Shown: positions 7,035 to 39,173 of the stretch, one piece after another
Numbering within the stretch: position 1 is the first letter of the stretch
Layout: every line of letters starts with the position of its first letter
Source of the DNA: Acetobacter sacchari
GTDB taxonomy: Bacteria > Pseudomonadota > Alphaproteobacteria > Acetobacterales > Acetobacteraceae
Length of the DNA stretch: 64,000 bases
Direction of reading: 5' to 3'
Assembly: GCF_017377715.1 (NCBI RefSeq)
Contig: NZ_JAFVMF010000003.1
Span: 186,001-250,000 of the forward strand
Notes under the pieces: model-generated
Database searches by the model: none
Told to the model about the DNA's origin: nothing
Seen by the model: only the letters and a program-made list of their open reading frames with translations
Made by a program: the position numbers and the translations under genes

Positions 7035-7077
7035 TTGACGCATCTATGGTGATCACCATACTATGGCGATTGCCATA
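7035..7077 (+). promoter_or_regulatory. Promoter with two tandem palindromic TetR operators
   Basis: A perfect 16-bp palindrome TATGGTGATCACCATA occupies 7045-7060. A second near-perfect copy, TATGGCGATTGCCATA, occupies 7062-7077 (14 of 16 positions symmetric). A -35-like TTGACG at 7035-7040 precedes the first operator, and a -10-like CATACT lies at 7057-7062. The operators therefore cover the spacer, -10 and transcription start. Their placement between the divergent TetR and hydrolase genes suggests both are controlled. Confidence 0.72.
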
Positions 7078-7092
7078 TTTCGGAACGTGGCG

Positions 7093-9779: not shown

Positions 9780-9850
9780 TGTGCGGATTCCGATGATGGC
9801 GCCCGTTTATTCCGATCGGATGGCGCCCAGATTTCCGATCTGATGCCGCC
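9780..9850. repeat. IS21-type terminal repeats
   Basis: Three successive imperfect repeats, ATTCCGATGATGGCGCCC, ATTCCGATCGGATGGCGCCC and TTTCCGATCTGATGCCGCCC, begin with TG at 9780. Multiple terminal repeats of this kind are typical of IS21-like ends. They lie just outside the istB tail on the minus strand and so mark the right end of that element, abutting the istA remnant of another copy. Confidence 0.6.
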
Positions 9851-9901
9851 CAGGCGGGAGCATCGTCGGCGGGTTCATCAGGGGCTAAGCAGAGGTCGGC
9901 G

Positions 9902-10048
9902 TTAAGCCTTTGCGGAGCGGCGGGTGCGGCGGAGCGACTCTCCGGCGAGCTCGATGCGGTGGGCGTTGTGGACCACGCGGTCGAGGATGGCGTCGGCGTA
10001 GGTGGTCTGGCCGATCGCGGCGTGCCAGGCGGACACGGGGAGCGGGCT
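9902..10048 (-). pseudogene. IS21-family istB, C-terminal remnant
   Basis: The last 48 codons of an IstB helper ATPase are recognisable: [32 protein letters not shown] and AGESLRR, ending at a TAA at 9902. The ATPase core upstream is missing. Sequence beyond about 10048 is unrelated, and an IS630 element begins at 10209. No function is expected. Confidence 0.78.
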
Positions 10049-10208
10049 GGGGATTGGCGAGCAGCCTGTCGCTGCCAAGCCCCTCGCCGCCGGCATAGCG
10101 CGGTCGGGAGTGGCGCTTAGGGCGGGGCGATTCGACCGCCCCGCGACAACGTTGGATGGGGAAAGGTCTGCCAACCTGAACAGCGTTCAGGATAATCGCA
10201 AAATACTA

Positions 10209-11256
10209 GAGCGAAATCCTACCTGTCTGGATCGTACCCGGCGGCACTGAAGTAGTTGGCACACTCGTCTGGCGTGAAGGTTTTGGAGAGCGTGCCGATG
10301 GTGTTCCACAGGGCTTCGACGGTCCGGGCGGCCGCTTTGCGCAGATAGGCCTTGAGCTTGGCGAAGGCGTTCTCGATGGGGTTGAAGTCCGGGCTGTAGG
10401 GCGGCAGGAACTTTAATGTGCCACCGGCCTGCTCGATGAGATGGCGGGTGCGCTCGCCCTTGTGGCTGGAGAGGTTGTGCATGATGACGACATCGCCTGG
10501 CCTCAACTCCGAAATCAGAACGCGCTCGATGTAGGTCTCGAAGGCGACCCGATTGATCGGGCCGTTCATGACGAACGGGGCGATCATCCCGTGATGGGCC
10601 AACCCGGCGATGACGGTTGCCGTGCGCCAGTGCCCGAAGGGTACGCCCATGCGCAGCCGCTGTCCGCGCGTGAAGCGGCCATGGGTGCGGGCCATATTGG
10701 TCTTGGCCCAGGTCTCATCGATAAAGACCAGGCGCTCGGGGTCGAGATCGATCTGTCCGTCGAACCAGGCCTGTCGTCGGCTCAGGATATCGGGCCGATC
10801 CTGCTCGCTTGCGTGCGCGGTCTTTTTTGCGCGTCAGCCCGTGTCGGGCGAAGAAGCGCTGCAGCGTGCCATGACCGAAGCTGTGGCCGACATCGATTAG
10901 GGCAGCGCGAAGCTCTGCGGTCGTCATGTCCGGTGTCTGCGCCAGAAGGCGACAGATCAACTCGTGCTGGGTTTCGATCCTGCTGGAGCGGCGGTCGCCG
11001 CCCAGCGCTCCGGGCGCGACATCCCCTTGGCGCCGATCCAAGGCTCGCCAGCGACTGACGCTCGCGGCGCTGACGCCGAACCGGGCTGCCGCGGCACGGT
11101 GGCTGGCACCCTCGGCGACAGCCGCCAGAACACGAGTTCGGAGATCAACTGAAAGGGCTCGCGACATGACGGCCAGCCTCCCCGCCGGCCGGCATCATGA
11201 ATCACAGATCAGCCGACGTGTGTACCCTCGCGATTCAATCAGATCGGGGAGCGCTC
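10209..11256 (-). mobile_element. IS630-family insertion sequence, complete
   Basis: About 1.05 kb bounded by TA dinucleotides at 10207-10208 and 11257-11258, the target duplication expected for IS630/Tc1 elements. The ends share GAGCG as the outer part of the inverted repeat. It carries one transposase in two frames. It lies just beyond the truncated istB remnant, so it may have inserted in the IS21 debris. Confidence 0.8.
10219..11167 (-). CDS. IS630-family transposase, two frames joined by +1 shift
   Basis: The first frame (10715-11167) encodes the N-terminal HTH: LRTRVLAAVAEGASHRAAAARFGVSAASVSRWR and the linker up to HGLTRKK. The catalytic DDE domain continues in another frame that can be read KKTAHASEQDRPD...QAWFDGQIDLDPERLVFIDETWAKTNMARTHGRF, through DVVIMHNLSSHKG to PPYSPDFNPIENAFAKLK. 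The shift falls at six consecutive A residues (minus strand; 10823-10828) where skipping one base restores the frame. IS630 relatives often express transposase by frameshifting at A runs, so this may be programmed rather than a defect. The IDE and HN(L)SSHK acidic/His region and PDFNPIE motif are all present. Confidence 0.8.
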
Positions 11257-11362
11257 TAGACCCTGTGTTGCGTCCAGAACCCCGGCTGGCGCCGCGGTGA
11301 TCGCAGGGCGGCGCCGGAGACCGGGGGAACGGCTGGTCGGTCTCTGACGCCAGCCGCCTGTC

Positions 11363-12268
11363 TCAATCTGCCGACCTTTGGCCATAGGCCGTCGGCGACA
11401 GCCCCGTGATGCGACTGAATGCGGTGCTGAAGGCGCTCACCGACCCATAGCCCGCCAATTTCGCGACTTCGATCATCGGACGCCTGCCCGACATCAGGAC
11501 GGCTTTAGCCAACGTCATGCGCCAAGCCGACAGATAGCCGATAGGCGAGACGCCGACGATCTCGGCGAAACGGGCCGCGAACCCGGCACGCGACATACCC
11601 GCTTCTTCAGCCAGGCGCGCGACGGTCCAGTCTCGCGACGGCTCCTTGTGCAACGCTCGAAGGGCACGACTGATGCGCAGATCGGCCAGGCCCGCCAGCA
11701 GTCCGGGACGCATGCCTTCCAGCTGATCGGCGCGATGGCGCAGCGATTCCACGAGAACTACCTCCAGCAGGCGGTCCAGCACCAGCGACCGACCTGGCCG
11801 ATCCGACGTAGCCTCCTCGTCGAGGAGACCCAGCAGCCGTCCCAGCCGCTGAGCGACAATGTCGGCCGCGCGGATGTGCACGATCGGCGAGAGTAGGCCC
11901 GCAATCTGATCGGCATTGGGCTCGGCGAACATGAAATGGCCCGCGAGAAATCGGGCGGCAGGCGCGGCGGGATCAACCCCCTGGAGGGCTTTCGGGTCAG
12001 CGAACAGCGCTTTCAGTCCAAGCGGCTTTACCTCCGGACCCGATCGCATGACCCACTCCGGTGGGTAGGCCATGATCATGAAGTCACCGGGGTGGAGCGT
12101 GACCCGGACATCGCCGCGTTCGAGAGTACACCCCCCTTCGATCATCTGTCCGAACACCACCGCCGCCACGGCTGGAAAGCCGATGGCCCACGGTTCTCGC
12201 GCGGAAATCATGCGCCAGCTCAATTCGCGTGGGCGCAGCAGGCCGACAACTTGCGACAAGGGATCCAA
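11363..12268 (-). CDS. AraC-family regulator with cupin-type effector domain
   Basis: A 301-residue regulator. Residues about 10-190 form the AraC-binding cupin-like domain (GDVRVTLHPGDFMIMAYPPEW). The C-terminal pair of HTH motifs is in DWTVARLAEEAGMSRAGFAARFAEIVG and PMIEVAKLAGYGSVSAFSTAFSRITGLSPTAY. It is divergent from the epimerase-like gene at 12360 across about 90 bp and probably controls it. A paralogous arrangement (AraC gene divergent from an SDR gene) recurs at 41453-43207. The ligand is unknown. Confidence 0.85.
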   Translation of the reverse strand: MDPLSQVVGLLRPRELSWRMISAREPWAIGFPAVAAVVFGQMIEGGCTLERGDVRVTLHPGDFMIMAYPPEWVMRSGPEVKPLGLKALFADPKALQGVDPAAPAARFLAGHFMFAEPNADQIAGLLSPIVHIRAADIVAQRLGRLLGLLDEEATSDRPGRSLVLDRLLEVVLVESLRHRADQLEGMRPGLLAGLADLRISRALRALHKEPSRDWTVARLAEEAGMSRAGFAARFAEIVGVSPIGYLSAWRMTLAKAVLMSGRRPMIEVAKLAGYGSVSAFSTAFSRITGLSPTAYGQRSAD

Positions 12269-12359
12269 TTGGACGCTCGATAATCAGATTTGGAGTTTAA
12301 GTTATAGATCGTCTGGTTAGCGACCGCTACCTTACCACGGATATCATGGGGAGGTCGGA

Positions 12360-13322
12360 ATGCGCGTCTTCATCACCGGCGCAAGCGGTTTCATTGGCCA
12401 GGCGGTGGTCAGAGAGCTTATCGGCGCCGGCCATCAGGTCGTCGGGCTGACGCGTTCAAAGAACGCCGCTCGGACACTCGCCGGACTTGGCGCTGAAGCC
12501 CATCAAGGCTCCCTATACGAGCTCGACACCCTGCGCGCCGGTGCGGCCGCCGCCGACGGCGTCATCCACCTGGCCTTCGTCCATGCGCCAGGCGACATCC
12601 CACTCGGACGGCGACTGGGCATTTTCCTTGGCGGCGCGCCGTCCGGCATCGTCGGCCGGTTCGGCGCGGCCATGACAGGCACAGACCGTCACGCAATCGA
12701 TGCACTGGGCGCGGCGCTGCAAGGCTCGGGGCGGCCCCTGGTCACGGTGTTCGGCGCCATGGGAATGGCCGAGGGACAGATCGCCACGGAAGACGACGAA
12801 CCGGACCCGCGCGCGCCGGGCTGGCTACGCTCGCAGACGGAGGCGACCGTCGCGGCTTGGGCCGAGAAAGGTGTCCGCGCGACGGTGGTCCGTCTCGCGC
12901 CCTCGGTTCACGGCGACGGCGACCGTGGTCTCGTCCCGAGGCTCCTCACCGTGGCGCGCAAGCGCAGGGGCTCGGGCTATGTTGGTGACGGCGAGAATCG
13001 GTGGAGCGCCATCCATCGCCTCGATGCGGCGGTCCTGCTGCGCCGAGCGCTGGAAGAGGGCCAAGCCGGCGCACGCTATCACGGCGTCGCCGAGGAAGGC
13101 ATTGCGTTCCGGGAGATCGCCAAGGTAATCGCACGACGACTGAACCTGCCCGCGATCAGCATGACGCGCGAAGAGGCGGCGCGTCGGTTCAGCTGGCTCG
13201 CCCCCTTCGCTGCCTATGACAACCCGATCTCCAGTCGGCTGACCCAGCAACGGCTCGAATGGCGGCCGATTCAAACCGGGCTGCTCGCCGATCTCGACCG
13301 CGAGGCGTATTTCCACGAATAG
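12360..13322 (+). CDS. NAD(P)-dependent epimerase/dehydratase-like extended SDR
   Basis: A 320-residue Rossmann-fold protein with GASGFIGQAVVREL at residues 7-20 (GxxGxxG cofactor motif) and D52/V65-type strands ending in DGVIHLAFVHAP. The canonical YxxxK pair is not obvious; SQTEATVAAWAEKG occupies the place, as in atypical NmrA-like extended SDRs. It has a good ribosome-binding site, GGGGAGG, 7 bp before the ATG. It may act on small aldehydes or ketones or as a redox sensor; no substrate can be named. Divergent from the AraC gene. Confidence 0.8.
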   Translation: MRVFITGASGFIGQAVVRELIGAGHQVVGLTRSKNAARTLAGLGAEAHQGSLYELDTLRAGAAAADGVIHLAFVHAPGDIPLGRRLGIFLGGAPSGIVGRFGAAMTGTDRHAIDALGAALQGSGRPLVTVFGAMGMAEGQIATEDDEPDPRAPGWLRSQTEATVAAWAEKGVRATVVRLAPSVHGDGDRGLVPRLLTVARKRRGSGYVGDGENRWSAIHRLDAAVLLRRALEEGQAGARYHGVAEEGIAFREIAKVIARRLNLPAISMTREEAARRFSWLAPFAAYDNPISSRLTQQRLEWRPIQTGLLADLDREAYFHE

Positions 13323-13559
13323 GCGGACCGGCGTCGCGGCCTCGACAACCACAACGACCAGCCGGGCAAACTCCACCACACTAACCGTTGGGCGATCGTC
13401 GCGTCCCAGATCAACGTCTGCCGAACTCAACGGCGTCAAGCTATATACCTGACTGCGCGATGCGCTCGAGCCAACGGCTGCTACTCACTCGAACGAACGG
13501 CTATGCGACTTGATACCGTGGGCGGACCCCCGCCTCGACGGCCGACCAGTTCCGCCAGA

Positions 13560-13860
13560 GCCAGGCCTTGGCGGCCGGATCGGTCGGGCCAAGCTGCAGG
13601 ATCTCGAACGGTACCGGCCGCAGCGCATGCAGGTCGAACGGCGGATCCGCCCTCTCGGCTACGGACGGCTGCATGTGCTGTCAGGCGCGAGAGCTATGGG
13701 GTGAACCGCAAGCGCGTCCAGCGGCTCTGTCGCGAGGAGAAGCTGACGGTGCGCCGGCGCGGCGGCCGCAAGCAGGTAATGGGAACGCGCCGCCCGACCG
13801 AGGCGGCGCTGATACCTAATCGGCGCTGGAGCCTGAAACGCCGCAGCCACCCGATGGATG
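13560..13860 (+). pseudogene. IS3-family transposase OrfB fragment, frameshifted
   Basis: One frame contains RRIRPLGYGRLHVLSGARAMG and a second contains YGVNRKRVQRLCREEKLTVRRRGGRKQVMGTRRPTEA followed by PNRRWSL, the region just before the integrase-like DDE domain of IS3-family OrfB. The catalytic core is missing and the frames are broken. A dead IS remnant. Confidence 0.72.
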
Positions 13861-14192
13861 CAGGCGCTAACAGGACCTAGCAGGAGAGCCAGCTGGCTAT
13901 GGTGGAACGCTCGCCGGCGAAAGCGTTCTTTGAGGTGCGGCCTCGACGGCGGCGAGCTCTCGGGCGTCAGACGCACCTCAAGCGCGCCCGGCATCTCGGC
14001 TAGCCGGTCGCGGAGCAAACGCGAACCCAGGTAGCCGCCCACGTGAGCAGTCTTGCGCAAGATTGCGACAGTGTGCGCAGGGCGTCGAGCGACGGAGCCA
14101 CCTCCATTTGGCAATGGAGCCCACAAATCGACCGCCTCGCTCCGAGAGCTAACGAGGCGGCAGGTCATTCTGGCTCTGGCGAGAAATGGATA

Positions 14193-14948
14193 ATGGAAAA
14201 CGTGATCACCAGTGAAGTCGAAGGCAAGGTCGCTATTGTGACGGGCGCGGCGAGCGGCATTGGTCGAGCTGTCGTGGAGTTGCTGCACGAGCGGGGGGCC
14301 AAGGTCGTGGCGGAGGACGTGAATCCAACCGTTCTTGATCTTGCTCAGGATGGCTTGGCGCCGCTCGTCGCCGACATTACTCAGGACGGGTCCGCCGAAG
14401 CGGCAGTCTTGTTTGCCGCCGAGAGATTCGGCGGCCTAGACATCCTCGTCAACAACGCCGGGCGGATCGTCTACAAGGATATCGTCGATCTCAGCCGTGG
14501 GGAGTGGGATTGGCAGATGCAGACCAACGTGACGGGAGCCTTCCTCCACTCGCGTGAGGCGCAAAAGGCGATGAGGCCCAGACGGTCCGGCGCGATCATC
14601 AACATCGCCTCTTACGCTTCTTTCTTCTCCTTCCCAGGCATCTCCGCCTACGCTGCCTCGAAGGGCGCGTTGGCGCAGCTCACCCGGACGCAGGCCTTGG
14701 AGGCGATCCCGTATGGCATCCGCGTCAATGCAATTGGTGTGGGTGACACCGTGACCAACATTCTCAACCACTTCCGCGAGGACGGTCGCGAGTTTCTGGC
14801 CGAACATGGCGGCAGGGCGCCGATCGGCCGTGCGGCGCACCCGCGAGAGATCGCCGAAATCGTTGCCTTCCTGGCTTCCGACCGGGCGAGCTTCATTGTC
14901 GGAGCTGTTCTGATGGCCGACGGCGGAATGAGCGTCCCCGTGGGATGA
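14193..14948 (+). CDS. Classical short-chain dehydrogenase/reductase
   Basis: A 251-residue SDR starting at 14193 (the frame is open further upstream, but the SDR fold begins here). Motifs are GAASGIGRAVVELL near 16-29 (TGxxxGxG), NNAG near 87, Ser in NIASYASFFSFPGISAYAASKGAL (catalytic Tyr and Lys as YAASK), and RVNAIGVGDT. The tail ends DGGMSVPVG. The next gene starts within its stop (ATGA overlap), so it is co-transcribed with an AraC-type regulator. The oxidised or reduced substrate is unknown. Confidence 0.88.
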   Translation: MENVITSEVEGKVAIVTGAASGIGRAVVELLHERGAKVVAEDVNPTVLDLAQDGLAPLVADITQDGSAEAAVLFAAERFGGLDILVNNAGRIVYKDIVDLSRGEWDWQMQTNVTGAFLHSREAQKAMRPRRSGAIINIASYASFFSFPGISAYAASKGALAQLTRTQALEAIPYGIRVNAIGVGDTVTNILNHFREDGREFLAEHGGRAPIGRAAHPREIAEIVAFLASDRASFIVGAVLMADGGMSVPVG

Positions 14949-15853
14949 ACGCCAAACCATTTCCGTATCCGAAGGCAAATTGGCTGCTCGGGCACTTGCC
15001 GGGCGAGCTGGTCGCTCATGCGGAAACAGGAGCTGGTGGCCTAATCGCGCACCTCATTACACACCGTACGATCGAGACTCCAGTGCTTGTGCCTGCGGTC
15101 GCGGAGCCTCTGCTGGTCTGGATTGCCACCGGCGCGGCCCGCGTGGAGGAGCGCGCCGACGACGGTGGCTGGCGCAGGATCGAAGTCGGCCCGGGCGATC
15201 TCTTTGTGGTCGACTCGGACGAGCCTTACGAGTTGCGTTGGCAAGCACTTGGGGAGTCCTTTCAGGCGCTGCATGTCTATTTGAGCGTCGCGCTCGTTGA
15301 GGCGGCAGCGCTCGCCCTCTACGGCCAGCGCCAGCGACCGAGCCTGCGCGAGCCATCCGGCGCTCGGGACGCATGGGTCTCGGCGCTGCTGGAAGTCATG
15401 CACCGCGAGATGACGCGTGTCGGGGTCCCCACGACGCTTCTGCTCGAAGGGGTGGGCCAGGCGCTAGCCGTATGTGTGCTGCGGACCTTCACGGACAGCA
15501 ACGTCCGTATCGAGCGCCGGGGCGCCCTACCGTCGATCCAGCTGCGCGCCGTCGTTCAGCATATGCGCGACCACCTCGCCGAGCCTTTCTCGCTCATCGT
15601 GCTCTCGTCGATCGCCGGGCTGAGCCCTTTCCACTTCAGCCGAGTGTTCAAACGATCAGCGGCCTCCTCGCCACGTGATTATTTCATCGGCCTGCGTGTC
15701 AAAGAGGCCCGCCGCTTGCTCCGTGAGACCACTATGCCGGTGATCGAGGTCGGCTTAGCGGTCGGCTACGAGAGCCCCAGCCACTTCGCTCAGATGTTTC
15801 GGCGCGCTACCGGAATGACGCCAACTCAGTTCCGCGGGGCTTCCTCATCGTGA
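14945..15853 (+). CDS. AraC-family regulator, cupin_6 type
   Basis: A 302-residue regulator with an N-terminal cupin-like domain (IEVGPGDLFVVDSDEPYELRW near 81-101). Its C-terminal AraC HTH pair comprises PFSLIVLSSIAGLSPFHFSRVFKRS and PVIEVGLAVGYESPSHFAQMFRRATGMTPTQFR. The start overlaps the SDR stop by 4 bp, so it is translationally coupled to the SDR and probably autoregulates the pair. Such proteins usually sense aromatic or aldehyde ligands; which one is not visible. Confidence 0.86.
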   Translation: MNAKPFPYPKANWLLGHLPGELVAHAETGAGGLIAHLITHRTIETPVLVPAVAEPLLVWIATGAARVEERADDGGWRRIEVGPGDLFVVDSDEPYELRWQALGESFQALHVYLSVALVEAAALALYGQRQRPSLREPSGARDAWVSALLEVMHREMTRVGVPTTLLLEGVGQALAVCVLRTFTDSNVRIERRGALPSIQLRAVVQHMRDHLAEPFSLIVLSSIAGLSPFHFSRVFKRSAASSPRDYFIGLRVKEARRLLRETTMPVIEVGLAVGYESPSHFAQMFRRATGMTPTQFRGASSS

Positions 15854-16010
15854 AGGGCAGCACGAATAAGTCGCCGCCGAAGTGCGGCAATGCAATGGTC
15901 CGCTCAACCTCACTCTGATCGCTCCGTAGCGCCTCGTCGAAGGTCGGCTCCAGTGTTGATGACCTTTGCCTCGAGGCGCATGCACGGAACGGATGGTCCG
16001 CCTCGAAATT

Positions 16011-16150
16011 GACAAGCGGAGAACGAACATGTTCGGGCGGCTCAAGGACCAGCGCCGCGTCGTGACCCGCTACGATCGTTGCACCCACACCGTCTTCTCT
16101 GCCATCTGCATTGCAGCCACCATCACCTTCTGGGCTCGATACAGATTCCT
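16011..16150 (+). pseudogene. IS5-family transposase, C-terminal tail
   Basis: The reading frame includes MFGRLKDQRRVVTRYDRCTH and then FSAICIAATITFW. This matches the conserved end of a different IS5-group transposase (MFGRLKDWRRIHTRYDRCAHTF). Only about 45 codons remain and the frame runs straight into the left end of the complete IS5 element at 16152. The stretch 15854-16010 upstream holds nothing else I can name. Confidence 0.72.
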
Positions 16151-16151
16151 A

Positions 16152-17014
16152 AAGGGTGTTATGTACTTTGGTGGCGGTTTGATTCATATCGGAGGGCATG
16201 ACGACTGCGCGCAAGCCGTATCCCTCTGATGTCAGCGACGACGAATGGTTGCTGGTGATGCCGTATCTGACGTTGATGACGGAGACGGCGCCGCAGCGGG
16301 AGCATTCGCTGCGCGAGCTGTTCAATGCGCTGCGCTATGTGATCCGCTACGGCATTGCCTGGCGGGCCATGCCCAACGACTTCCCCCCTTGGGCGGCGGT
16401 CTACCAGCAGGCGCAGCGCTGGATGGCGGCGGGATGCTTCGAAGCCCTGGCCCAGGATCTGCGGGTGCTGCTGCGCATGGCGTCTGGTCGGCCACCGGAC
16501 CCCACCGCTGCAATCATCGACAGCCGCACCCTGCGCTCGTCGCCCGAGGGCGGCACCCGTGCCGGGTATGACGGCGCCAAGCGCAAACGAGGGTCCAAGG
16601 TGCATCTGGCAGTGGATACGCTGGGCCATCTGCTGGCGCTGCACGTGACCCCGGGCGACGTTGGCGACCGCACGGCGGTGAAGCGCCTTGCCGCCGACAT
16701 CCAGGATGCAACCGGGGATACCGCCACGCTGGCTTATGTCGACCAGGGCTACACCGGCGATGTGGCGGCCAACGCGGCCGCTGCCGAGGGCATCGCCCTG
16801 CATGTGGACCGCCTCCCCGAGGCCAAGCGCGGGTTCGTGCTGCTGCCCAGGCGCTGGGTCGTGGAGCGATCCTTCGCCTGGGCCACACGTTGCCGCAGGT
16901 TGGTCAAAGACTACGAACGCTATGCCGCTACACTCGCCAGCTTCCACGTCATCGCGTTCGTCGGATACATGCTCAAACACGTAGCTCAGATCATGCAAGG
17001 TGCATAACACCCTC
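16152..17014 (+). mobile_element. IS5-family insertion sequence, complete
   Basis: 863 bp with terminal inverted repeats reading AAGGGTGTTATGTACTTTG on the left and GAGGGTGTTATGCACCTTG from the right. It is flanked by TA at 16150-16151 and 17015-17016, consistent with the TA duplication of the IS427-like branch of IS5. It holds one transposase gene. Confidence 0.82.
16198..17007 (+). CDS. IS5-family transposase
   Basis: A 269-residue DDE transposase in a single frame. The N-terminal DUF4096-like domain (PYPSDVSDDEWLLVMPYL and ALRYVIRYGIAWRAMPNDFPPW) precedes the catalytic domain. The first Asp lies in AIIDSRTLR, then GYDGAKRKRGSKVHLAVDTLGHLL. The second Asp lies in YVDQGYTGD and the Glu in RRWVVERSFAWATRCRRL. 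All three catalytic positions are present, so it should be active. Confidence 0.9.
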   Translation: MTTARKPYPSDVSDDEWLLVMPYLTLMTETAPQREHSLRELFNALRYVIRYGIAWRAMPNDFPPWAAVYQQAQRWMAAGCFEALAQDLRVLLRMASGRPPDPTAAIIDSRTLRSSPEGGTRAGYDGAKRKRGSKVHLAVDTLGHLLALHVTPGDVGDRTAVKRLAADIQDATGDTATLAYVDQGYTGDVAANAAAAEGIALHVDRLPEAKRGFVLLPRRWVVERSFAWATRCRRLVKDYERYAATLASFHVIAFVGYMLKHVAQIMQGA

Positions 17015-17017
17015 TAG

Positions 17018-18096
17018 CTGTCAGGTTGTGAGACGTCATTGGGATGAGGTATCGTGGGCTATTGCTGCTTACGCCCTTTGGTTTGACGTCGAACGCCAGA
17101 GAGATCGTTGATGCACCAGATCCATCCGCAAGCCCGCACGACACCTGCCGTCCGGGCCGAAATCGCGCGCTCGACGGAAGGGACCGGGGTTTTGGCGCGA
17201 CGCTTCGGTATCAGTGACGAGACGGTGCGCAAGTGGCGCAGGCGCGGAGTAGAAGGGTGCACCGATCGGAGCAGCAAGCCCCGGTTACTGGCCTGGAAAG
17301 CGACCGCGGAAGAACGCGCGATCGTCTGCCATCTGCGTCGCGCCACCGGGTTCGGGCTCGATGACCTGACGTTCGTGCTGCGGCACTTCCTGCCCCACCT
17401 CAACCGCGACAGCGTCTGGCGCATCCTCAAGGACGCAGGGCTCAACCGACGGCCGGCGAAGGAGAAGGTCCGCCCGGCGCGGGGAGAGGGCACCTTCCGG
17501 GATTATGACCTGGGCTACGTCCATATCGACGTGAAGCATCTGCCGAAGCTGCAGACTGCCGATGGCGAGGCCCGTAAACGGTTCCTCTACGTCGCGATCG
17601 ATCGCTGCTCGCGCTTTGTGCATCTGGCCGTCTACGACGCCGAGAATGCAGCCAATGCCGTCGAGTTTCTCAAGACCGTCAAAGCCGCCTTTCCCTTCCG
17701 GGTTACGCATATCCTGACCGACCGAGGCTCGTGCTTCACTGCAGACGCCTTCGAGAAAGCCTGCCAGGATGTCGATCGTCGGCGAACCCGAGCGTATTCC
17801 CCTCAGACGAACGGCATGGTCGAGCGGTTCAACGGTCGCATCGCAACCGAGGTTCTGCCGATCAACGTCGCACACCACGCGGATCTCGAAGTCCTGCTGC
17901 ATGGGTTCAATCACGCCTATAACCAGCGCCGACAGCGGGTTCTGGGCGGCCTTCCGCCCACCGCGAAAGTCGCCGAGCGCCTCAAGCAGAGACCACGTCT
18001 GCGTAATCGAAGCTATAAAACCATGACAGAGGTCAGTATCATGAACGACCTCGACCGTATCATGGTCTACGCCAATGACGTCTCACAACCTGACAG
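17018..18096 (+). mobile_element. IS481-family insertion sequence, complete
   Basis: The ends form a perfect inverted repeat of at least 24 bp beginning TGTCAGGTTGTGAGAC on the left (17019) and the same from the right (18095). Flanks are CTAG at 17014-17017 and 18097-18100, matching the CTAG-centred target preference known for IS481. The left CTAG was formed by the right end of the IS5 element (C), its TA duplication and the following G, so IS481 arrived after IS5. Confidence 0.85.
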
Positions 18097-18100
18097 CTAG
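17108..18100 (+). CDS. IS481-family transposase
   Basis: A 330-residue DDE transposase. The N-terminal HTH is VLARRFGISDETVRKWRRRGVEGCTDRSSKP (residues 33-63). The rve-type core has Asp in DYDLGYVHIDVKHLP, Asp in THILTDRGSCFTADAFEKAC and Glu in YSPQTNGMVERFNGR. The stop codon TAG lies in the flanking CTAG, so the gene uses target-site sequence to terminate. Expected to be functional. Confidence 0.9.
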   Translation: MMHQIHPQARTTPAVRAEIARSTEGTGVLARRFGISDETVRKWRRRGVEGCTDRSSKPRLLAWKATAEERAIVCHLRRATGFGLDDLTFVLRHFLPHLNRDSVWRILKDAGLNRRPAKEKVRPARGEGTFRDYDLGYVHIDVKHLPKLQTADGEARKRFLYVAIDRCSRFVHLAVYDAENAANAVEFLKTVKAAFPFRVTHILTDRGSCFTADAFEKACQDVDRRRTRAYSPQTNGMVERFNGRIATEVLPINVAHHADLEVLLHGFNHAYNQRRQRVLGGLPPTAKVAERLKQRPRLRNRSYKTMTEVSIMNDLDRIMVYANDVSQPDS

Positions 18101-31760: not shown

Positions 31761-32101
31761 CAGACCAGCGCCCCACCGCTGAAGGAGAAGAACGAGAGGA
31801 AGAAGCTCGACGCTGCGAAGGCGATCGAGAGACCGAAGACGATCTGGATCAGCCGGCGGAAGCCGCCAGAGGTGTCGCCGAAGGCGAGGGTCAGGCCGGT
31901 CACCGTGATGATGATCACCGAGATGATCTTCGCGACCGGGCCTTGCACGGACTCCAGGATGGAGTTGAGCGGCGTCTCCCAAGGCATGGAGGAGCCGGAG
32001 GCATAGGCCGCCGGTGCGAATGCCAGCGAGAGCGCCGCGAAGGTGATCACGTCGAGGGCGCGCCGGTGCAACCGGCGGGTAGTGGCGAGAACGCGGATCA
32101 T
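31760..32101 (-). CDS. trbC: TrbC (VirB2-like) pilin
   Basis: A 113-residue pilin precursor. After a basic N-terminus ([14 protein letters not shown]) there is a signal segment VITFAALSLAFAPAAYASG. The mature part holds two membrane helices (VAKIISVIIITVTGLTLAFG and IVFGLSIAFAASSFFLSFF), as in VirB2 pilins. The start overlaps the trbB stop by 4 bp. Confidence 0.9.
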   Translation of the reverse strand: MIRVLATTRRLHRRALDVITFAALSLAFAPAAYASGSSMPWETPLNSILESVQGPVAKIISVIIITVTGLTLAFGDTSGGFRRLIQIVFGLSIAFAASSFFLSFFSFSGGALV

Positions 32102-33102
32102 GATTGGTCTCCGAGATCGCCGCCCGCCTCGGCGGGTTGGACGCGGTAATCGCCGGTAGCGGGATCGAGACCGGCGATGAGGGCGAGTTCGGAGAGGCGG
32201 CGTTCGCCGCCGCGGCCGCGCAGCACCGCGATGAGATCGATGGTCTCGGCGATGAGCGCAGTGGGGACGGTGACGACGGCTTCCTGGATAAGCTGTTCCA
32301 GACGCCGGATCGCGCCGAGCGCAGTGCCGGCGTGGATCGTCCCGATCCCGCCCGGATGGCCCGTGCCCCACGCCTTCAGGAGGTCGAGCGCTTCAGCGCC
32401 ACGGACTTCGCCGATCGGGATGCGATCGGGCCGAAGGCGCAGCGACGACCTGACGAGGTCGGACAGCGAGGCGACGCCATCCTTGGTTCGCATCGCGACC
32501 AAGTTGGGCGCCCGGCATTGCAGCTCGCGCGTGTCCTCGATCAGCACCACGCGGTCGCTCGTGCCGGCGATCTCGGCCAGCAGCGCGTTGGTGAGCGTCG
32601 TCTTGCCGGTGCCGGTGCCGCCGGCGACGAGGATGTTCTTGCGCGTCGCGACGGCGGCCCGCAGGGCGGCCGCCTGGCCAGCGGTCGTAGTGCCGGCGGC
32701 GACGTAATCGTCGAGGGTGAAAACTGCGACGGCGGGCTTGCGGATCGCGAAGGCCGGCGCTGTGACGACGGGCGGCAACAGCCCCTCGAACCGCTCTCCC
32801 GTCTCGGGCAGCTCGGCCGAGACGCGCGGCCTGTCCGCGTGGACCTCGGCGCCGACATGGTGCGCGACCAGGCGCACGATCCGCTCGCCATCGGCGGGCG
32901 ACAGCGTGCGACCGCTATCTTCGAGGCCACCCGACAGCCGGTCGATCCAGAGCCGGCCGTCGGGATTGAGCATCACCTCGACGATCGACGGGTCTTCGAG
33001 GAAGGCGGCGATCGCCGGGCCGAGCGCGGTGCGCAGCATGCGCGCGCCGCGTGAGAAGGCCTCGGAATGGAGCGGAGCTGCCGCCACGATCGTCCCCGTC
33101 AT
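32098..33102 (-). CDS. trbB: TrbB (VirB11-like) transfer ATPase
   Basis: A 334-residue hexameric secretion ATPase. It has [17 protein letters not shown] as Walker A (Lys167), the Asp box [12 protein letters not shown], the catalytic [18 protein letters not shown] segment, and a [17 protein letters not shown]is box. The N-terminal domain includes [20 protein letters not shown]. First gene of the trb block; in related elements the copG and traG genes precede it directly, but here a 3-kb opposite-strand gene intervenes. Confidence 0.94.
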
Positions 33103-33126
33103 TGGCCAATCGCGACGCGCGATTGG
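33101..33126. repeat. Inverted repeat next to the trbB start
   Basis: ATTGGCCAAT (33101-33110, itself a palindrome) overlaps the arm CCAATCGCG at 33106-33114, which is mirrored by CGCGATTGG at 33118-33126 with a 3-base loop. It is in the trbB leader, so it may be an operator, a translation-control hairpin or a scar at the edge of the inserted segment. Confidence 0.55.
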
Positions 33127-33482
33127 CGACGGGGATGATTAGAAAAGGCAGGAAATAGGGCAGTTCAACAAGTATTCAGGCGGCGTAGGAGGCCAGCGTA
33201 GCGCAGGGAAAAAAGACTTGCTGGGTGCGAAGTGATTCTCCATCGATGCCGGCATTGGTTCTAAGTTGCTCAAGCCGTCAGCTTTCAATGTATCAGTGCC
33301 CCTGGGAGGGTCCGGTTGTTGGAGCCGGTCCGACCTTCGCCGCGGCTCGGTTTCCACAATCCGTAGCCAGAGATCGACTGCTAGGATTGCTGCATGCAGG
33401 GGCGCTGCGACCGATCGCGGGATTGAGGCTCCCGCCGGATGTCAACCTGTGCTATTCGACGTGCGGGAGGTGTCCAGAATAA
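33127..33482. other. Intergenic stretch between trbB and the PHP-ATPase gene
   Basis: About 355 bp with no supported gene. The part next to trbB is less GC-rich than its surroundings and probably carries divergent promoters. A purine-rich GGGAGGTG lies 16 bp before the ATPase ATG as a weak ribosome-binding site. It likely marks the left junction of the inserted gene. Confidence 0.45.
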
Positions 33483-36400
33483 ATGAAAGAATACAAGGAC
33501 GTTGGGCCGCGCGGTTCCGAGTGGCGCAAATGGGATCTTCAGGTCCACACCCCCGCGTCGCACCTCAACAACCAGTTCGGCAGCGACTGGGACGTCTACG
33601 TCCAGAACCTTTTCCGGATGGCGCTCACTAAGGGCATCGCCGTCATTGGCCTCACCGACTATTTCACCATAGACGGTTACAAGAAGGTCAAGGAGGACTA
33701 CCTCGCCAACCCTGCCAAGCTGAAGGCACTGTTCAGCGCGGAGGAGATCGAACAGATCGCGGGGATGCGCGTCCTCCCCAATATCGAGTTCCGCCTGAGA
33801 ACGCTCGTCGGGCCGAATCGCATCAATTGCCACGTCATCCTGTCGGACGAGGTGGCGATCCGCGACATCGAGGAGAATTTCCTACACGACCTGACCTTCA
33901 CCAATCAGGCCAAGCCGCAGGCGACCGCCGAGACGCACAAGCTGAAGGTCGAAAATCTGCGGCAGTTCGGCGAGCGGCTCATCAAGGAGCATCCACCGTT
34001 TGGTGAACAGGGGGACGCGCTGTTCGTCGGCATGACCAACGCCGTGGTGGACGACAACCATATCCTTCAGGCGCTTCAGGACAGCAGGTTCAAGGATAAA
34101 TTCCTGTTTTGCGTCGTGGCGGACGAAGATCTACCCAAGCTCAAGTGGGACTCACAGGACCATCATACTCGCAAGCTGCTGATCCAGCGTTCCGATGCGC
34201 TGTTCGCGGGCAACCCCGCCACGCGCAACTGGGCGCTGGCCCGCGAGCCGCAATACACCGACGGCGAAGAGCATTTCCTCAGGGAGTTCAAGACGCTCAA
34301 GCCCTGCGTCCACGGCTCTGATTGCCACGGCTATCCCGAAATCGGGCACCCCTGCGCGAAGAGGGGCAAAAAGGGCCACGATTGCGCAGCGGTGCCGGCG
34401 GAGTGCGAGCTTCGCTATTGCTGGATCAAGGCCGACACCACGTTCGAAGGCTTGCGCCAGATCCTCCACGAGCCCGCGGACCGCGTCTACATCGGTGCCT
34501 CGCCGCCGGTGTACTATGACGAGGCGCGCGTCATCTCCCGCGTTACTTTGAGCGACGGCAAGGGATGGTTCTCCGACGTGTCCATTCCACTCAATGCGGG
34601 GATGGTTTCGATCATCGGCCAGAAGGGATCGGGGAAATCGGCGCTTGCCGACTTGATCGCGTTCGCTGCTGGAAGCTGGGATCCTGCCGAAAAGGACTGC
34701 TTCCTCAAACGTTCCAGCGGCCACCTCGACGGCATGAAAGTCACTCTTCATTGGGCTGACGGTCATACATCGGAAGGCATAGTCGGTCGGGATCGCCGTC
34801 CCACGAATGAGGTCCACTACCTCTCACAGAACTATGTCGAGCGCATCTGCGCTAAGGACGGCATCACCAAGGAGCTGGTCCGCGAAATCGAGAAGGTCGT
34901 CTTCCACTACCTCGACCCGACCGACACGCTGAACGCGTCCGACTTCGAGGAACTGCGGCTCATCAAGACCGAGGGTGTCCGCGAAGAGGGCAACCGTCTG
35001 CGGGACGAGATGTATGCGGTCATTCGCGACGAATGCGCGTTGCGGGACCTGATTGCCAAGACCCCAGAGAAGCAGGCACGCGTCAAAACCTTAACCGAGG
35101 AGCGGGAGGGTCTACTGAAGCAATTGCCCGCGCCTGCCTCGGAGGCCGAAGCCAAGGTTCAGGAGGAATTGCAGCAGAAGCGGCAGGAGCTGACTAAGGC
35201 CCAGCAAGGCGTAGCTGCGCACAAGCAGAACCTTCAGCGTATCGCAGACATCCGGACCCGCACCGGCGCGTTCGGAGTGCAGATGGAGCGGTTCTTCGAA
35301 CAGTTACAGCCGACGCTCCGTGAGGTCGGTGTGCCCGAAGGCGAATGGAAGAAGTTCCGGCCAGATTTCCCCGCCGAGATCGAGCCGCCGCTAGCCGCGC
35401 GAGAGAAGGCCGTCAACGAAGCCATCGCTGTGGTCGAGGGCGGCGAACCTCCAGCTGCTGGCACGATCCGCAAGCTTCTGGCAGAGATAGACGAGCTGAT
35501 GAAACGGGAGACCGCGGACAAGGCGCGCCAGGAGCGAACGAAGCAGATTCAGAACCGCGTCGCCGTTATCAACACCGAGGTCGAACGGCTCAATGCCGAG
35601 ATCAAGAACGTCGAAGAAAACGGCTCGGCTCAGATCGCGACTTTCGGGACCAAGCGTCTCGACGCCTATGTGGCGTACTTCGCAAACCTTAAGCTGGAAC
35701 AGCAAGCGCTTCAGGGGCTTTACGATCCGATCAGGGAGCGTCTGACCAAACAGGCCCTTCTAAAGGGCAGGGAACTTGAGTTCGCCATCCGCTGGGCGGC
35801 TGACGTTTCCACATGGATCGAGCGCGGCGCGGCTCTGTTCGACCAACGGCGCGCCGTGCCTTACGGCAGCGTCGAGCAATTAGGCAAGGCGGCGAACCGC
35901 ATCCTTCTCCCGGCATGGGCGAGCGGCGATCCGGAGCGGATCCGGACTGCCTTTGAAATCTTCATGGGTGAATTCAGGAAGAAGGAGCTGCCGTGGAAGA
36001 GCTACGTCCGGAACGGCGTCACGCTTCAGGATGTGCTGAACTGGCTTTATGAGGTCAGCCATATTCGCCTCGAATACGGCCTCAAGTTTAACGGCGCCGA
36101 ACTAGAAAGCCTGTCCCCCGGCACCAAGGGCATCGTGCTCCTGATCCTCTATCTCGGCATGGATATCGAGGACAGCAGGCCGCTGGTTGTCGACCAGCCC
36201 GACGAGAACCTCGACAACGAGTCAATCTATAACCTTCTGACTCCATACTTTCGGCTGGCAAAGGTGAGGCGACAGATCATCGTCATCACACACAACCCGA
36301 ATCTCGTCGTGAACTCTGATTCTGAGCAGGTGATCGTCGCCACCGGCGAGAAGCAGGAGAACGGCCTTCCCATCATCAGCTACAATTCCGGTTCTCTTGA

Positions 36401-36512
36401 AGAGAACCACCCCCCCGAGACCGGCATGCGTCAACAGGTCTGCAATATACTGGAAGGCGGCGACGTCGCCTTCCTCAAGCGCGAAAGGCGTTACGCGATC
36501 AGAGAGAAGTAG
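33483..36512 (+). CDS. PHP-domain SMC/RecF-like ATPase (TrlF-like), putative defence gene
   Basis: A 1009-residue two-module protein. The N-terminal PHP-type phosphoesterase module has WDLQVHTPAS (Asp18, His22), IGLTDYF (56-61), PNIEFRL (Glu102), NCHVIL (His117) and HGSDCHG (Asp280, His282), followed by CWIKADTTFEGLRQIL (family hallmark). Walker A IIGQKGSGKSALAD starts at 377 (Lys385). A long charged coiled coil spans roughly 480-780. The signature LSPGTKGIVLLILYL is next, then Walker B PLVVDQPDENLDNE (Asp904) and VITHNPNLV (His937). This is the layout of NCBI's TrlF family AAA-like ATPases; a nuclease gated by ATP-driven DNA or RNP sensing is plausible. It is the only gene on the + strand inside the transfer region and separates trbB from the copG-like gene, so it looks like inserted cargo. 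Biochemical function is unproven. Confidence 0.8.
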   Translation: MKEYKDVGPRGSEWRKWDLQVHTPASHLNNQFGSDWDVYVQNLFRMALTKGIAVIGLTDYFTIDGYKKVKEDYLANPAKLKALFSAEEIEQIAGMRVLPNIEFRLRTLVGPNRINCHVILSDEVAIRDIEENFLHDLTFTNQAKPQATAETHKLKVENLRQFGERLIKEHPPFGEQGDALFVGMTNAVVDDNHILQALQDSRFKDKFLFCVVADEDLPKLKWDSQDHHTRKLLIQRSDALFAGNPATRNWALAREPQYTDGEEHFLREFKTLKPCVHGSDCHGYPEIGHPCAKRGKKGHDCAAVPAECELRYCWIKADTTFEGLRQILHEPADRVYIGASPPVYYDEARVISRVTLSDGKGWFSDVSIPLNAGMVSIIGQKGSGKSALADLIAFAAGSWDPAEKDCFLKRSSGHLDGMKVTLHWADGHTSEGIVGRDRRPTNEVHYLSQNYVERICAKDGITKELVREIEKVVFHYLDPTDTLNASDFEELRLIKTEGVREEGNRLRDEMYAVIRDECALRDLIAKTPEKQARVKTLTEEREGLLKQLPAPASEAEAKVQEELQQKRQELTKAQQGVAAHKQNLQRIADIRTRTGAFGVQMERFFEQLQPTLREVGVPEGEWKKFRPDFPAEIEPPLAAREKAVNEAIAVVEGGEPPAAGTIRKLLAEIDELMKRETADKARQERTKQIQNRVAVINTEVERLNAEIKNVEENGSAQIATFGTKRLDAYVAYFANLKLEQQALQGLYDPIRERLTKQALLKGRELEFAIRWAADVSTWIERGAALFDQRRAVPYGSVEQLGKAANRILLPAWASGDPERIRTAFEIFMGEFRKKELPWKSYVRNGVTLQDVLNWLYEVSHIRLEYGLKFNGAELESLSPGTKGIVLLILYLGMDIEDSRPLVVDQPDENLDNESIYNLLTPYFRLAKVRRQIIVITHNPNLVVNSDSEQVIVATGEKQENGLPIISYNSGSLEENHPPETGMRQQVCNILEGGDVAFLKRERRYAIREK

Positions 36513-36611
36513 CGCTATGCGGTCGCGCGCAGCACCTCTATGGCCCACACGGCATCGCATGATCTCGGTGGCGTCCGCAACGAATCTATCGTCCGACCCT
36601 GATCGCCGATC

Positions 36612-37046
36612 TTAGTCGCACACAGTCCGCTCGACCGTGTCTTCTGCGATCTCCTGCCTTAGCTTCGGACCTTCGTTCAGACGCCGGCCAAGCGTGGCGA
36701 CAAAATTGTCATAGCGCGCCCCGGCCTGCGCACGAGCGGCCTTGGCCGCCGGCTCCGGCAGCGGCGGCGTCGTGTTGAGCCAGAAGCGGATGAACAGCGC
36801 CAGCGTCTCGACACCGATACCGACATCGCGTTCAAGCCGCGCCAGGCGCCGATCCTGCTGGTCGAGCCGCTTCGCGATAGCGGCCTCCCTCCGCTCGTCC
36901 GCATCCGGCGACAGGAATGACGCGATCGCGGCTTCGGCGATCAGCGACATCGAATGGTCCCGGCGCGCGGCATAGGCCGACAAGGCCTGCATGACATCCG
37001 GGTCGAGGTAGACGGAAAGCTGGGCCTTCTTCTTTGCCGTGACCAT
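36612..37046 (-). CDS. CopG/ribbon-helix-helix protein of the transfer operon
   Basis: A 144-residue protein with an N-terminal ribbon-helix-helix (KAQLSVYLDPDVMQALSAYAARRDHSMSLIAEAAIASFL, about 7-45). A helical C-terminal region contains RREAAIAKRLDQQDRRLARLERDVGIGVETLALFIRFWL. This gene regularly sits between traG and trbB in Trb-type elements and may regulate them or assist coupling. It follows traG by 7 bp. Confidence 0.85.
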   Translation of the reverse strand: MVTAKKKAQLSVYLDPDVMQALSAYAARRDHSMSLIAEAAIASFLSPDADERREAAIAKRLDQQDRRLARLERDVGIGVETLALFIRFWLNTTPPLPEPAAKAARAQAGARYDNFVATLGRRLNEGPKLRQEIAEDTVERTVCD

Positions 37047-37053
37047 CAGCGCC

Positions 37054-39036
37054 TCACATCCCCAGATCGTCGCCGGGATCGAGCGAGGCTTGCTGGGCGA
37101 GGCCCTGCATGAGGTCGTTCATGCGGCCGATGCGAGGCGCGTCCTCCTCCATCTCGTCGACCTGATCGAGCGCGAACTCATTCTCGATCGGAGCTTGCTT
37201 CTCGACGGAGCCTTGGCTGAGTTCCGGCTGCTTGCGCCGGTCAGTGTTCTTCGGATCCTCGTCGTCGGTGTCCTCGCCATCGACTTCAGCCGGCGCCGGT
37301 GGTCGGGGCGGCAGCGGGCGCGAACTCCAATCATCTGGCCGCCCCTCCTTCGGTCGCGTGAGCACGGGCGGCGCCATGATGCGCTCCTGAAACCGTTCAT
37401 CCTCGTAGTAGCGCGCCTTCTTCGCGCGGATCGGGTGGACGCCCGACACCATGACGATCTCGTCAGTGGGCGGGAGCTGCATCACCTCGCCTGGCGTCAG
37501 CAGCGGGCGCGCGGTCTCCGAGCGGGAGACCATGAGGTGGCCGAGCCAGGGCGACAGTCGGCTGCCGGCATAGTTCTTCATCGCCTTCATCTCGGTCGCG
37601 GTGCCGAGCGCGTCGCTGACCCGCTTTGCCGTCCGCTCGTCGTTGGTCGCGAAGCTGACTCGCACATGACAGTTGTCGAGGATCGAGTTGTTGGGGCCGT
37701 AGGCCTTCTCGATCTGGTTCAGCGACTGCGCGATCAGGAAACTCTTGATGCCGTAGCCGGCCATGAAGGCGAGCGCGGATTCGAAGAAGTCGAGGCGGCC
37801 GAGCGCCGGGAACTCGTCGAGCATCAAGAGGAGACGGCGTCGCCCGGCCTTGGCCTGCAGGTCCTCCGTCAGCCGCCGGCCGACCTGGTTGAGGATCAGG
37901 CGGATGAGCGGTTTGGTCCGGTTGATGTCGGACGGCGGCACGACGAGGTAGAGCGTCGTCGGCCGATCACTGGCCACGATGTCGCCGATCCGCCAGTCGC
38001 AACGACGCGTCACCTCGGCCACAACTGGATCGCGATAGAGGCCGAGGAACGACATGGCCGTGCTCAGCACGCCGGACCGTTCGTTGCCGGATTTGTTCAG
38101 CAGCTCGCGCGCGGCAGAAGCGACGACGGGATGGATGCCAGCCTCGCCGAGGTGCGGCGTTCGCATCATCGCCGAGAGCGTCGACTCGATCGGCCGCTTG
38201 GGATCGGAGAGGAAGGACGCAACACCGGCGAGCGTTTTGTCCTCCTCGGCGTAGAGGACGTGCAGGATGGCGCCGACCAGCAACGCGTGACTGGTCTTTT
38301 CCCAGTGATTCCGTTTCTCAAGGCTGCCTTCCGGGTCGACCAGGATGTCGGCGATGTTCTGGACGTCGCGGACCTCCCACTCGCCGCGGCGGACCTCGAG
38401 CAGTGGATTATAGGCTGACGACTTCGCATTGGTCGGGTCGAACAGCAGCACGCGGCCGTGCTGCGCCCGGAAGCCCGCAGTGAGCTGCCAGTTCTCTCCT
38501 TTGATGTCATGAACGATGGCCGAACCCGGCCAGGTCAGGAGCGAGGGGATGACCAGGCCGACGCCCTTGCCTGATCGGGTCGGCGCGAAGCATAGCACAT
38601 GCTCCGGCCCATCATGGCGGAGGTAGCTGCGGTCATGGCGGCCCAGCACCAAGCCATCGGGGCCGAGCAGGCCAGCTTCGGCGATCTCCTTCGGTTGCGC
38701 CCAACGTGCGGAGCCGTAGGTCTCGACGTTCTTCGCCTCGCGCGCGCGCCAGACTGACATGCCGATGGCGGCGGTCGCGGCGATGAGCCCGCCGGATGAT
38801 GCGATGTAGGCGCCCTCGATGAAGATCGACGGCGCATAGGCGTCGTAGGCGTACCACCACCAGAAGAAGGCCGGAGGGAGGTAGAACGGGAAGTGTAGGA
38901 TCTCGAACCAGGGCCGCCCCAGCTCGGGCTGAAAGCCGAGCCGCCAGGCCGTCCATTCGGTAGCGGTCCAGATCGCCAGCAAGACGATGGCGAAGACGGT
39001 GATGATTTGACCCCAGAGAATCTTGGTCGCAGGCAT
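37054..39036 (-). CDS. traG: TraG (VirD4-like) coupling protein
   Basis: A 660-residue inner-membrane coupling ATPase that feeds the relaxosome to the channel. I chose the ATG at 39036, preceded by GAAGGGA 7 bp upstream, giving MPATKILWGQIITVF; an ATG at 39087 would add 17 residues. Membrane segments lie at about 8-28, 48-66 and 75-93. Motifs are CFAPTRSGKGVGLVIPSLL (Lys157), AIVHDIKGENW, LLLMLDEFPALGRLDFFE (Walker B) and SFLIAQSLNQIEKAYG. The acidic C-terminal tail (EVDGEDTDDEDPKN) is likely the relaxase-docking part. Confidence 0.93.
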   Translation of the reverse strand: MPATKILWGQIITVFAIVLLAIWTATEWTAWRLGFQPELGRPWFEILHFPFYLPPAFFWWWYAYDAYAPSIFIEGAYIASSGGLIAATAAIGMSVWRAREAKNVETYGSARWAQPKEIAEAGLLGPDGLVLGRHDRSYLRHDGPEHVLCFAPTRSGKGVGLVIPSLLTWPGSAIVHDIKGENWQLTAGFRAQHGRVLLFDPTNAKSSAYNPLLEVRRGEWEVRDVQNIADILVDPEGSLEKRNHWEKTSHALLVGAILHVLYAEEDKTLAGVASFLSDPKRPIESTLSAMMRTPHLGEAGIHPVVASAARELLNKSGNERSGVLSTAMSFLGLYRDPVVAEVTRRCDWRIGDIVASDRPTTLYLVVPPSDINRTKPLIRLILNQVGRRLTEDLQAKAGRRRLLLMLDEFPALGRLDFFESALAFMAGYGIKSFLIAQSLNQIEKAYGPNNSILDNCHVRVSFATNDERTAKRVSDALGTATEMKAMKNYAGSRLSPWLGHLMVSRSETARPLLTPGEVMQLPPTDEIVMVSGVHPIRAKKARYYEDERFQERIMAPPVLTRPKEGRPDDWSSRPLPPRPPAPAEVDGEDTDDEDPKNTDRRKQPELSQGSVEKQAPIENEFALDQVDEMEEDAPRIGRMNDLMQGLAQQASLDPGDDLGM

Positions 39037-39173
39037 CGTAATTCCCTTCGGCTCCATGAATTCGTCGAGCCGGTTTGGGAATTGCAAGTCCGATACTTGT
39101 GAAGGGGAAGCCCAGCGCGATACGGCGCAAAAAGACTTAAAGGCGCGTAGGTAGTTGGCCGGAGGTCAGGATA

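What the first reader, a model, noticed from the sequence alone, without database searches (positions are those of the whole stretch)
33127..36611. PHP-plus-ATPase gene inserted in the transfer operon between trbB and copG
Seen: a 1009-residue gene on the opposite strand splits the otherwise tightly overlapping minus-strand trb/copG/traG run. It has PHP metal-site residues (Asp18, His22, Glu102, His117, Asp280/His282), an SMC-like Walker A (Lys385), a coiled coil and Walker B (Asp904). Known: PHP domains are phosphoesterases or nucleases, and SMC-like ATPases act on DNA; TrlF-family proteins combine them. Inference: this junction is a cargo hotspot and the protein is a single-gene defence or anti-competitor factor protecting host or element. 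The exact target is undescribed.
Basis: partly seen in the sequence, partly recalled or inferred. Interest (0 to 1): 0.75.

Follow-up and report, generated by a model that had tools for sequence, protein, structure and literature searches.

The report
Zinc-knuckle defence ATPase in conjugation operon
A mobile DNA element carries one large gene at a spot in its conjugation genes where related elements hold different cargo or none; its protein is predicted to join a nuclease-like metal domain to a DNA-repair-type ATPase and likely defends against phages or rival DNA.

Summary
A 1009-aa gene (33483-36512, +) sits in a 3.4-kb insert between copG and trbB of a minus-strand transfer run. It is a TrlF-family protein (NCBIfam NF045780, 590 bits, cut-off 350). 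Residues 1-343 are predicted to fold as a PHP domain (nearest: EndoQ, PsfC, RNase AM), although Pfam sees no PHP. The rest resembles SMC/RecN/Rad50 ATPase heads.

The junction is a cargo slot: of 80 trbB loci 33 are empty (144-312 bp), 31 occupied (0.67-8.1 kb), 16 unscorable. The adjoining traG-copG and trbB-trbE intervals are uninterrupted in 61 of 61 and 77 of 77 measurable loci. Cargo is mixed: IetAS defence in two loci, otherwise mostly transporters and other genes.

New: the gene belongs to a TrlF clade with a C-H-C-C zinc-knuckle-like insert just after the PHP motif GSDxH, usually with Gln for the first PHP metal His. A 63%-identical clade member lies in a prophage-like contig. A copy differing at 4 of 3030 bases fills the same slot in another genus.

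Defence is likely but untested; I found no measured function for TrlF.

The parts
33483..36512 (+). TrlF-family gene, 1009 aa
   Evidence: NCBIfam NF045780 590 bits, cut-off 350
33513..34511 (+). predicted PHP domain, residues 11-343
   Evidence: model pLDDT 93.6; fold matches to PHP enzymes
34353..34406 (+). C-H-C-C zinc-knuckle-like insert, residues 291-308 (Cys291, His299, Cys301, Cys308)
   Evidence: in 22 of 92 aligned relatives, one clade; absent in the other 70; zinc binding predicted only
34617..34640 (+). Walker A, residues 379-386 (Lys385)
   Evidence: Gly379, Gly382, Gly384 and Lys385 in 92 of 92
34944..35753 (+). coiled-coil arm region, residues 488-757
   Evidence: long helices in the model
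36111..36215 (+). ABC signature and Walker B region, residues 877-911 (Asp904, Glu908)
   Evidence: invariant residues
33230..36611 (.). insert (cargo) absent from the alike locus L005
   Evidence: alignment to empty locus L005; homology resumes at 33229
33104..33229 (-). conserved trbB leader kept beside the insert
   Evidence: not shown to be a promoter
32098..33102 (-). trbB
   Evidence: relatives annotated trbB
36612..37046 (-). copG-like gene
   Evidence: relatives annotated CopG family; no NCBIfam match of its own
37054..39087 (-). traG coupling protein
   Evidence: Pfam T4SS-DNA_transf

Best explanation
This is a TrlF-family gene carried as exchangeable cargo in the copG-trbB slot of a conjugative element, and its protein likely works as a one-gene defence in which a predicted SMC/Rad50-like ATPase would gate a predicted PHP-type nuclease against invading DNA. 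Shown by sequence and comparison: the family, the slot with empty and occupied relatives, the invariant ATP-site residues, the shared PHP residues and the clade-specific C-H-C-C insert. Predicted: the PHP and SMC-head folds, and zinc binding by the insert. Inferred: that the PHP domain cuts nucleic acid (3' ends of phage DNA, by analogy with Ppl), that the ATPase head senses the trigger (exposed DNA ends or a fall in nucleotides), and that cell and element both benefit. The insert lies upstream of a conserved trbB leader, so the trb genes probably keep their own expression and the slot tolerates cargo.
Against: No experiment on TrlF defence was found. TrlF is not Ppl (88 against 1000 bits). 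The PHP site is non-canonical (Gln20, Tyr60), so activity is uncertain; metal geometry was not measured. Slot cargo is mostly not defence. Eight of 12 plasmid contexts have no clear defence system nearby (two of these have a toxin-antitoxin pair). No PADLOC family matches over the whole length. In the Photorhabdus locus the selected mutations fell in trlG, not trlF (passages of PMC7554251).
Confidence: 0.55

Rival explanations
1. It is an element-versus-element weapon: the SMC-like ATPase recognises incoming plasmids or rival conjugative elements (as Wadjet and DdmABC do) and the PHP domain degrades them; phages are incidental.
For: Its relatives are common on conjugative plasmids (214 plasmid records with a match over at least 80% of the length). 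The foldseek list for the whole model includes JetABC (Wadjet) chains. SMC-like anti-plasmid systems exist (passages of PMC12904381).
Against: A clade member in a prophage-like contig fits anti-phage as well. The similarity to JetABC is shared by all SMC-type heads.
Confidence: 0.17
2. It is a stress or growth-control factor, as the temperature-restriction locus suggests: the PHP domain acts on a host RNA or nucleotide and slows growth, without immunity.
For: The family is named from the Photorhabdus temperature-restriction locus, whose loss allows growth at 36 C (passages of PMC7554251). RNase AM is among the nearest folds.
Against: In that locus the phenotype mapped to trlG and no trlF mutations were seen. 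No trlG neighbour lies in the window's insert, which holds one large ORF. Growth arrest can itself be a defence.
Confidence: 0.12
3. It helps the element's own transfer or DNA processing rather than defence.
For: It sits inside the transfer region, and its head resembles RecN and Rad50.
Against: None of 80 related named loci has it there, it is on the opposite strand, and its relatives lie on other plasmids and a prophage-like contig.
Confidence: 0.08
4. The PHP half is catalytically dead and serves only as a sensor of nucleotides or metal, with some other activity doing the work.
For: First PHP His replaced by Gln, TDH by TDY.
Against: Glu102, His117, Asp280, His282 are invariant in 92 of 92 and His22 in 91; conservation this strict suggests catalysis or metal binding.
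Confidence: 0.08

Closest known systems
TrlF family (NCBIfam NF045780), named from the Photorhabdus temperature-restriction locus (PMC7554251)
   Same: Whole-length match over the cut-off; PHP-like N-terminal half and SMC-like ATPase.
   Different: No trlR or trlG beside it; C-H-C-C insert and Gln20 not seen in 70 of 92 aligned relatives; carried in a trb slot.
Ppl, one-gene anti-phage PHP exonuclease with NTPase
   Same: Same overall plan (PHP plus ATPase) as described in a review (passages); C-terminal ATPase similarity.
   Different: Only 88 bits against a cut-off of 1000; PADLOC Ppl best stretch is residues 870-1003.
EndoQ, PHP endonuclease that cuts at damaged bases
   Different: No SMC-type ATPase in EndoQ (recalled); 17-18% identity in the structural alignment.
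Lamassu/DdmABC and Wadjet (SMC-like sensor plus nuclease)
   Same: SMC-like ATPase coupled to a nuclease-type domain (passages); weak LmuB match.
   Different: One gene, PHP effector, no LmuA or LmuC partner in the insert.
Tn4371-like and ICEMlSym-like elements with Ti/RP4-type trb genes
   Same: traG followed by the trb cluster; variable accessory genes (passages of PMC2789088; PMC8627217).
   Different: The variable region in the passages I read lies between the relaxase gene and traR/traG, not between copG and trbB.

Membership tests
TrlF family | Whole-protein score over NCBIfam NF045780 cut-off (350 bits) | tested here: met
   590 bits, residues 10-1004 on profile 1-943 of 944
TrlF family | PHP-like N-terminal fold | tested here: met
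TrlF family | C-terminal SMC/ABC-type ATPase with Walker A, signature, Walker B | tested here: met
Temperature-restriction locus (trlR-trlF-trlG) | trlG and trlR next to trlF | tested here: not met
   Flanking genes are trbB and copG; the insert holds one large ORF; no trlG model was searched
Canonical PHP superfamily site | HxH and TDH metal motifs | tested here: not met
   Gln20-Val-His22 and Thr58-Asp-Tyr60
Canonical PHP superfamily site | Glu, His and GSDxH metal residues | tested here: met
   Glu102, His117, Asp280, His282 in 92 of 92
Ppl anti-phage protein | Score over NCBIfam NF042955 cut-off (1000 bits) | tested here: not met
   88.3 bits
Lamassu | LmuA and LmuC partners beside LmuB | tested here: not met
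   No further large ORF in the insert; LmuB match partial, E 3.1e-9
EndoQ | Sequence-level membership and lesion-specific endonuclease activity | not tested
   Only the fold was compared
Anti-phage defence system (function) | Protects cells from phage or foreign DNA | not testable with these tools
   Needs plaque and transformation assays

The most novel reading that the evidence does not exclude
TrlF-CHCC is a distinct class of one-gene immune nuclease: a zinc knuckle grafted beside a rebuilt PHP site reads a mark on foreign nucleic acid (a DNA end or an altered base, as EndoQ reads lesions), an SMC-like ATPase licenses the cut, and both conjugative elements and prophages trade it through dedicated cargo slots such as copG-trbB.
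Probability: 0.2. Interest if true: 0.75.

Novelty: new variant of a known kind. Interest (0 to 1): 0.5.

Why it matters
TrlF-like proteins are common on plasmids (214 plasmid records hold a match over at least 80% of the length), yet I found no measured function. The clade's zinc-knuckle insert next to the active site gives concrete residues to test. The copG-trbB slot, with its uninterrupted neighbours and retained trbB leader, offers a simple place to look for further cargo, some of it defence, in alphaproteobacterial conjugative elements.

Tried and rejected
PHP by sequence: Pfam (where 2 of 41 members matched PHP_C at best E 0.065 and PF02811 was not among the 25 of 56 families shown), PDB sequence searches and profile comparison with E. 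coli RNase AM and with a 300-residue piece of the genome's own PHP-polymerase-like ORF gave no significant PHP match. The weak alignment lines up three early motifs, but its probability is 0.44%, so I use only the fold result.

Repeats at the insert ends: only short, chance-like pairs. Promoter and terminator scans were at shuffle level, so I do not call the trbB leader a promoter. The leader motif was written after looking at eight empty sites, so some of its 33 hits are by construction.

TrlF in other trb slots: apart from G709's copy, none of the 16 genome-search loci that I tested (about 1.5 kb flanks) nor the four plasmid loci L091-L094 has a TraG, CopG, TrbB or TrbE match. The loci were not tested. 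The ten viral-contig loci have none either. TrlF in sequenced phages: seven records, none covering 80% of the query. A viral-contig scan with the single protein found nothing; the alignment scan found ten, of which L136 (63%) has the insert; the other nine are 29-39% identical and were not checked for it.

Solved TrlF or Ppl structure: none came up by sequence or in the Foldseek rows shown for the whole model; this does not exclude one.

Literature: ten searches. Only PMC7554251 treats this TrlF among what was listed; one search listed 20 of 38 papers, one search listed 3 of 327 and covered 2026 onward only. No paper was read whole; of PMC7554251, PMC2789088, PMC8627217, PMC12904381 and PMC9122126 I saw passages found by terms.

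Occupied loci are not all independent: L042 and L048 have the same ORF coordinates, L037 and L055 are much alike, and L010, L014, L016, L069 and L084 each hold one 442-444-aa ORF, of which only L010's was scanned. Forty ORFs from 21 of 31 occupied loci were scanned for Pfam; PADLOC was run on 17 of the slot's proteins and 3 of L117; NCBIfam on 9 slot proteins, none matching. In one search the insert scored in 41 of 235 proteins and 5 were unscorable; reading two of those five by eye (P0011, P0042) shows the insert too, and another pattern gave 42 of 240.

Full report
WHAT IS THERE. The gene is 33483-36512 on the + strand, 1009 aa. It lies inside a segment (about 33230-36611) that is absent from the otherwise alike locus L005, whose TraG, CopG, TrbB and TrbE are 91-93% identical to the window's. 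Homology to L005 resumes at 33229 and runs on towards trbB, while the sequence just after the copG stop has no match. The surroundings are a conjugative element: coupling protein, relaxase, ParA-like ATPase, trb proteins and, at the window's left edge, an integrase.

ACTIVE SITES. In an alignment of 92 relatives picked from the 240 returned by two searches, Glu102, His117, Asp280 and His282 are identical in all 92 and His22 in 91 (one gap); so are the ATP-site residues Lys385, Gln449, Pro879, Gly880, Asp904, Glu908 and His937 in all 92. Two canonical PHP positions differ: the TDH motif reads TDY in 92 of 92, and the first His of HxH is Gln20 here. By the order of structural elements, the place of the His in RNase AM's LAHPG motif is probably taken by an acidic residue at 215 (Glu or Asp in 92 of 92); this mapping is inferred, and the geometry was not measured.

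A NEW CLADE. Twenty-two of the 92 carry an insert with Cys291, His299, Cys301 and Cys308 directly after GSDxH; the other 70 lack it. The 22 form one clade with support 1.0. In the clade position 20 is Gln in 21 of 22 and position 227 is His in 22 of 22. Of the 47 positions that the script lists as specific to the clade, 43 lie in residues 20-310, so the change is concentrated in the PHP half. Over all 240 fetched proteins the insert was scored in 41 of 235 (5 unscorable). With the insert the first His is Gln in 33, His in 4 and unscored in 4; without it, His in 185, Gln in 0 and unscored in 9. Residues 291-310 are modelled mostly as coil at block pLDDT 94, as a metal knuckle would be. Zinc binding is predicted, not shown.

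THE SLOT. One scan kept the best 80 of 574 trbB relatives. A CopG match lies upstream in 64: the copG-trbB gap is 144-312 bp in 33 and 667-8148 bp in 31; 16 could not be scored because no copG match was in the DNA held. The neighbouring intervals serve as control: traG-copG is -12 to +14 bp in 61 of 61 measurable loci, and trbB-trbE is 374-523 bp in 77 of 77. None of the 80 has a TrlF match over 100 bits. A motif about 50 bp upstream of trbB is present in 33 of 33 empty, 25 of 31 occupied and 8 of 16 unscorable loci and in the window, against 17 of 1600 random stretches. Insertions thus usually leave the trbB leader in place. In L006 and L007, TrbB and TrbE are 91-93% identical to the window but CopG only 49-50% and TraG 77-78%, so the junction also looks like a recombination point.

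THE CARGO. Forty ORFs from 21 of the 31 occupied loci were scanned, with PADLOC on selected ones. IetAS defence pairs are in L061 and L075. Toxin-type genes: HipA in L009 and L055, RES in L034, AbiU2-like HEPN in L070. A helicase in L055 partly resembles HamB. Non-defence cargo: MFS carriers in five loci (L009, L010, L017, L022, L041), NhaA in L013, Nramp in L071, regulators, polysaccharide export and others; several ORFs have no match. In a Methylocystis plasmid, LmuA, LmuB and LmuC of Lamassu lie directly upstream of trbB, with no copG annotated in the stretch read. So defence is present in the slot but is a minority of it.

SPREAD. One genome of the same family but another genus (G709) carries the same insert in the same slot: 4 of 3030 bases differ in the gene and 2 residues change, while window 31983-32582 (inside and beyond trbB) differs by 68 in 600. 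The larger block 22481-43272 is 96.7% identical. No match was found in 48 other genomes of the window's genus. At E<=1e-30 relatives are in 4 of 385 genomes of the class sample, 13 of 395 of the order sample and 8 of 398 of the phylum sample, the window's own genome included in each. In viral contigs, one 63%-identical clade member with the insert (L136) lies beside a protein up to 46% identical to phage tail/late-control gene D products and near a tape-measure-like gene. Of 12 TrlF plasmid contexts read (from the top 23 hits, not at random), four have annotated defence genes nearby (restriction-modification and NACHT; restriction and caspase; CBASS; ABC-three-component and CHAT), two have a toxin-antitoxin pair and six have neither clearly.

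MECHANISM. The best reading is a single-gene defence: the ATPase head would sense a trigger and license a PHP nuclease. The closest described protein is Ppl, reported in a review as a one-gene ssDNA 3'-5' exonuclease held off by bound nucleotides and activated by nucleotide loss and 3' ends (passages of PMC12904381). TrlF is not Ppl (88 against 1000 bits); it can only be said to look as if it works like it. The one TrlF paper found (passages of PMC7554251) describes the temperature-restriction locus, where selected mutations fell in trlG and none in trlF, leaving TrlF's role open.

VERDICT. The kind is known (TrlF, PHP plus SMC-like ATPase). The zinc-knuckle clade and the sharply bounded copG-trbB slot are the new parts; I found neither described in the searches listed under Tried and rejected.

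Noticed in passing
window 22481-43272 and G709 C1:12858-33670: The conjugative element is shared at 96.7% over this block with a genome of another genus of the same family, while window 9546-18097 is missing there, so cargo differs around a recently exchanged backbone.
   Followed up: partly
L136:3444-6446 and 6871-7896: A TrlF-CHCC relative (63%) lies next to a phage tail/late-control D gene in a 38-kb viral contig, suggesting a cargo site of a prophage.
   Followed up: partly
L115:2155-4967: In an Indioceanicola plasmid, CBASS-type genes (nucleotidyltransferase, cGAMP-activated phospholipase) lie just upstream of traG, a second cargo position in the same transfer region.
   Followed up: no
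L117:3927-7674: LmuA, LmuB and LmuC of Lamassu lie directly upstream of trbB in a Methylocystis parvus plasmid.
   Followed up: yes
L006 and L007, copG-trbB junction: Mosaic elements: TrbB and TrbE 91-93% identical to the window but CopG 49-50% and TraG 77-78%.
   Followed up: partly
window 60964-62082: A DUF3800 protein gene of clearly lower GC (0.55) than its neighbours, possibly another cargo gene.
   Followed up: no
L026:7846-9762 and L028:8410-9531: Slot cargo ORFs without any match in Pfam, PADLOC or NCBIfam.
   Followed up: no
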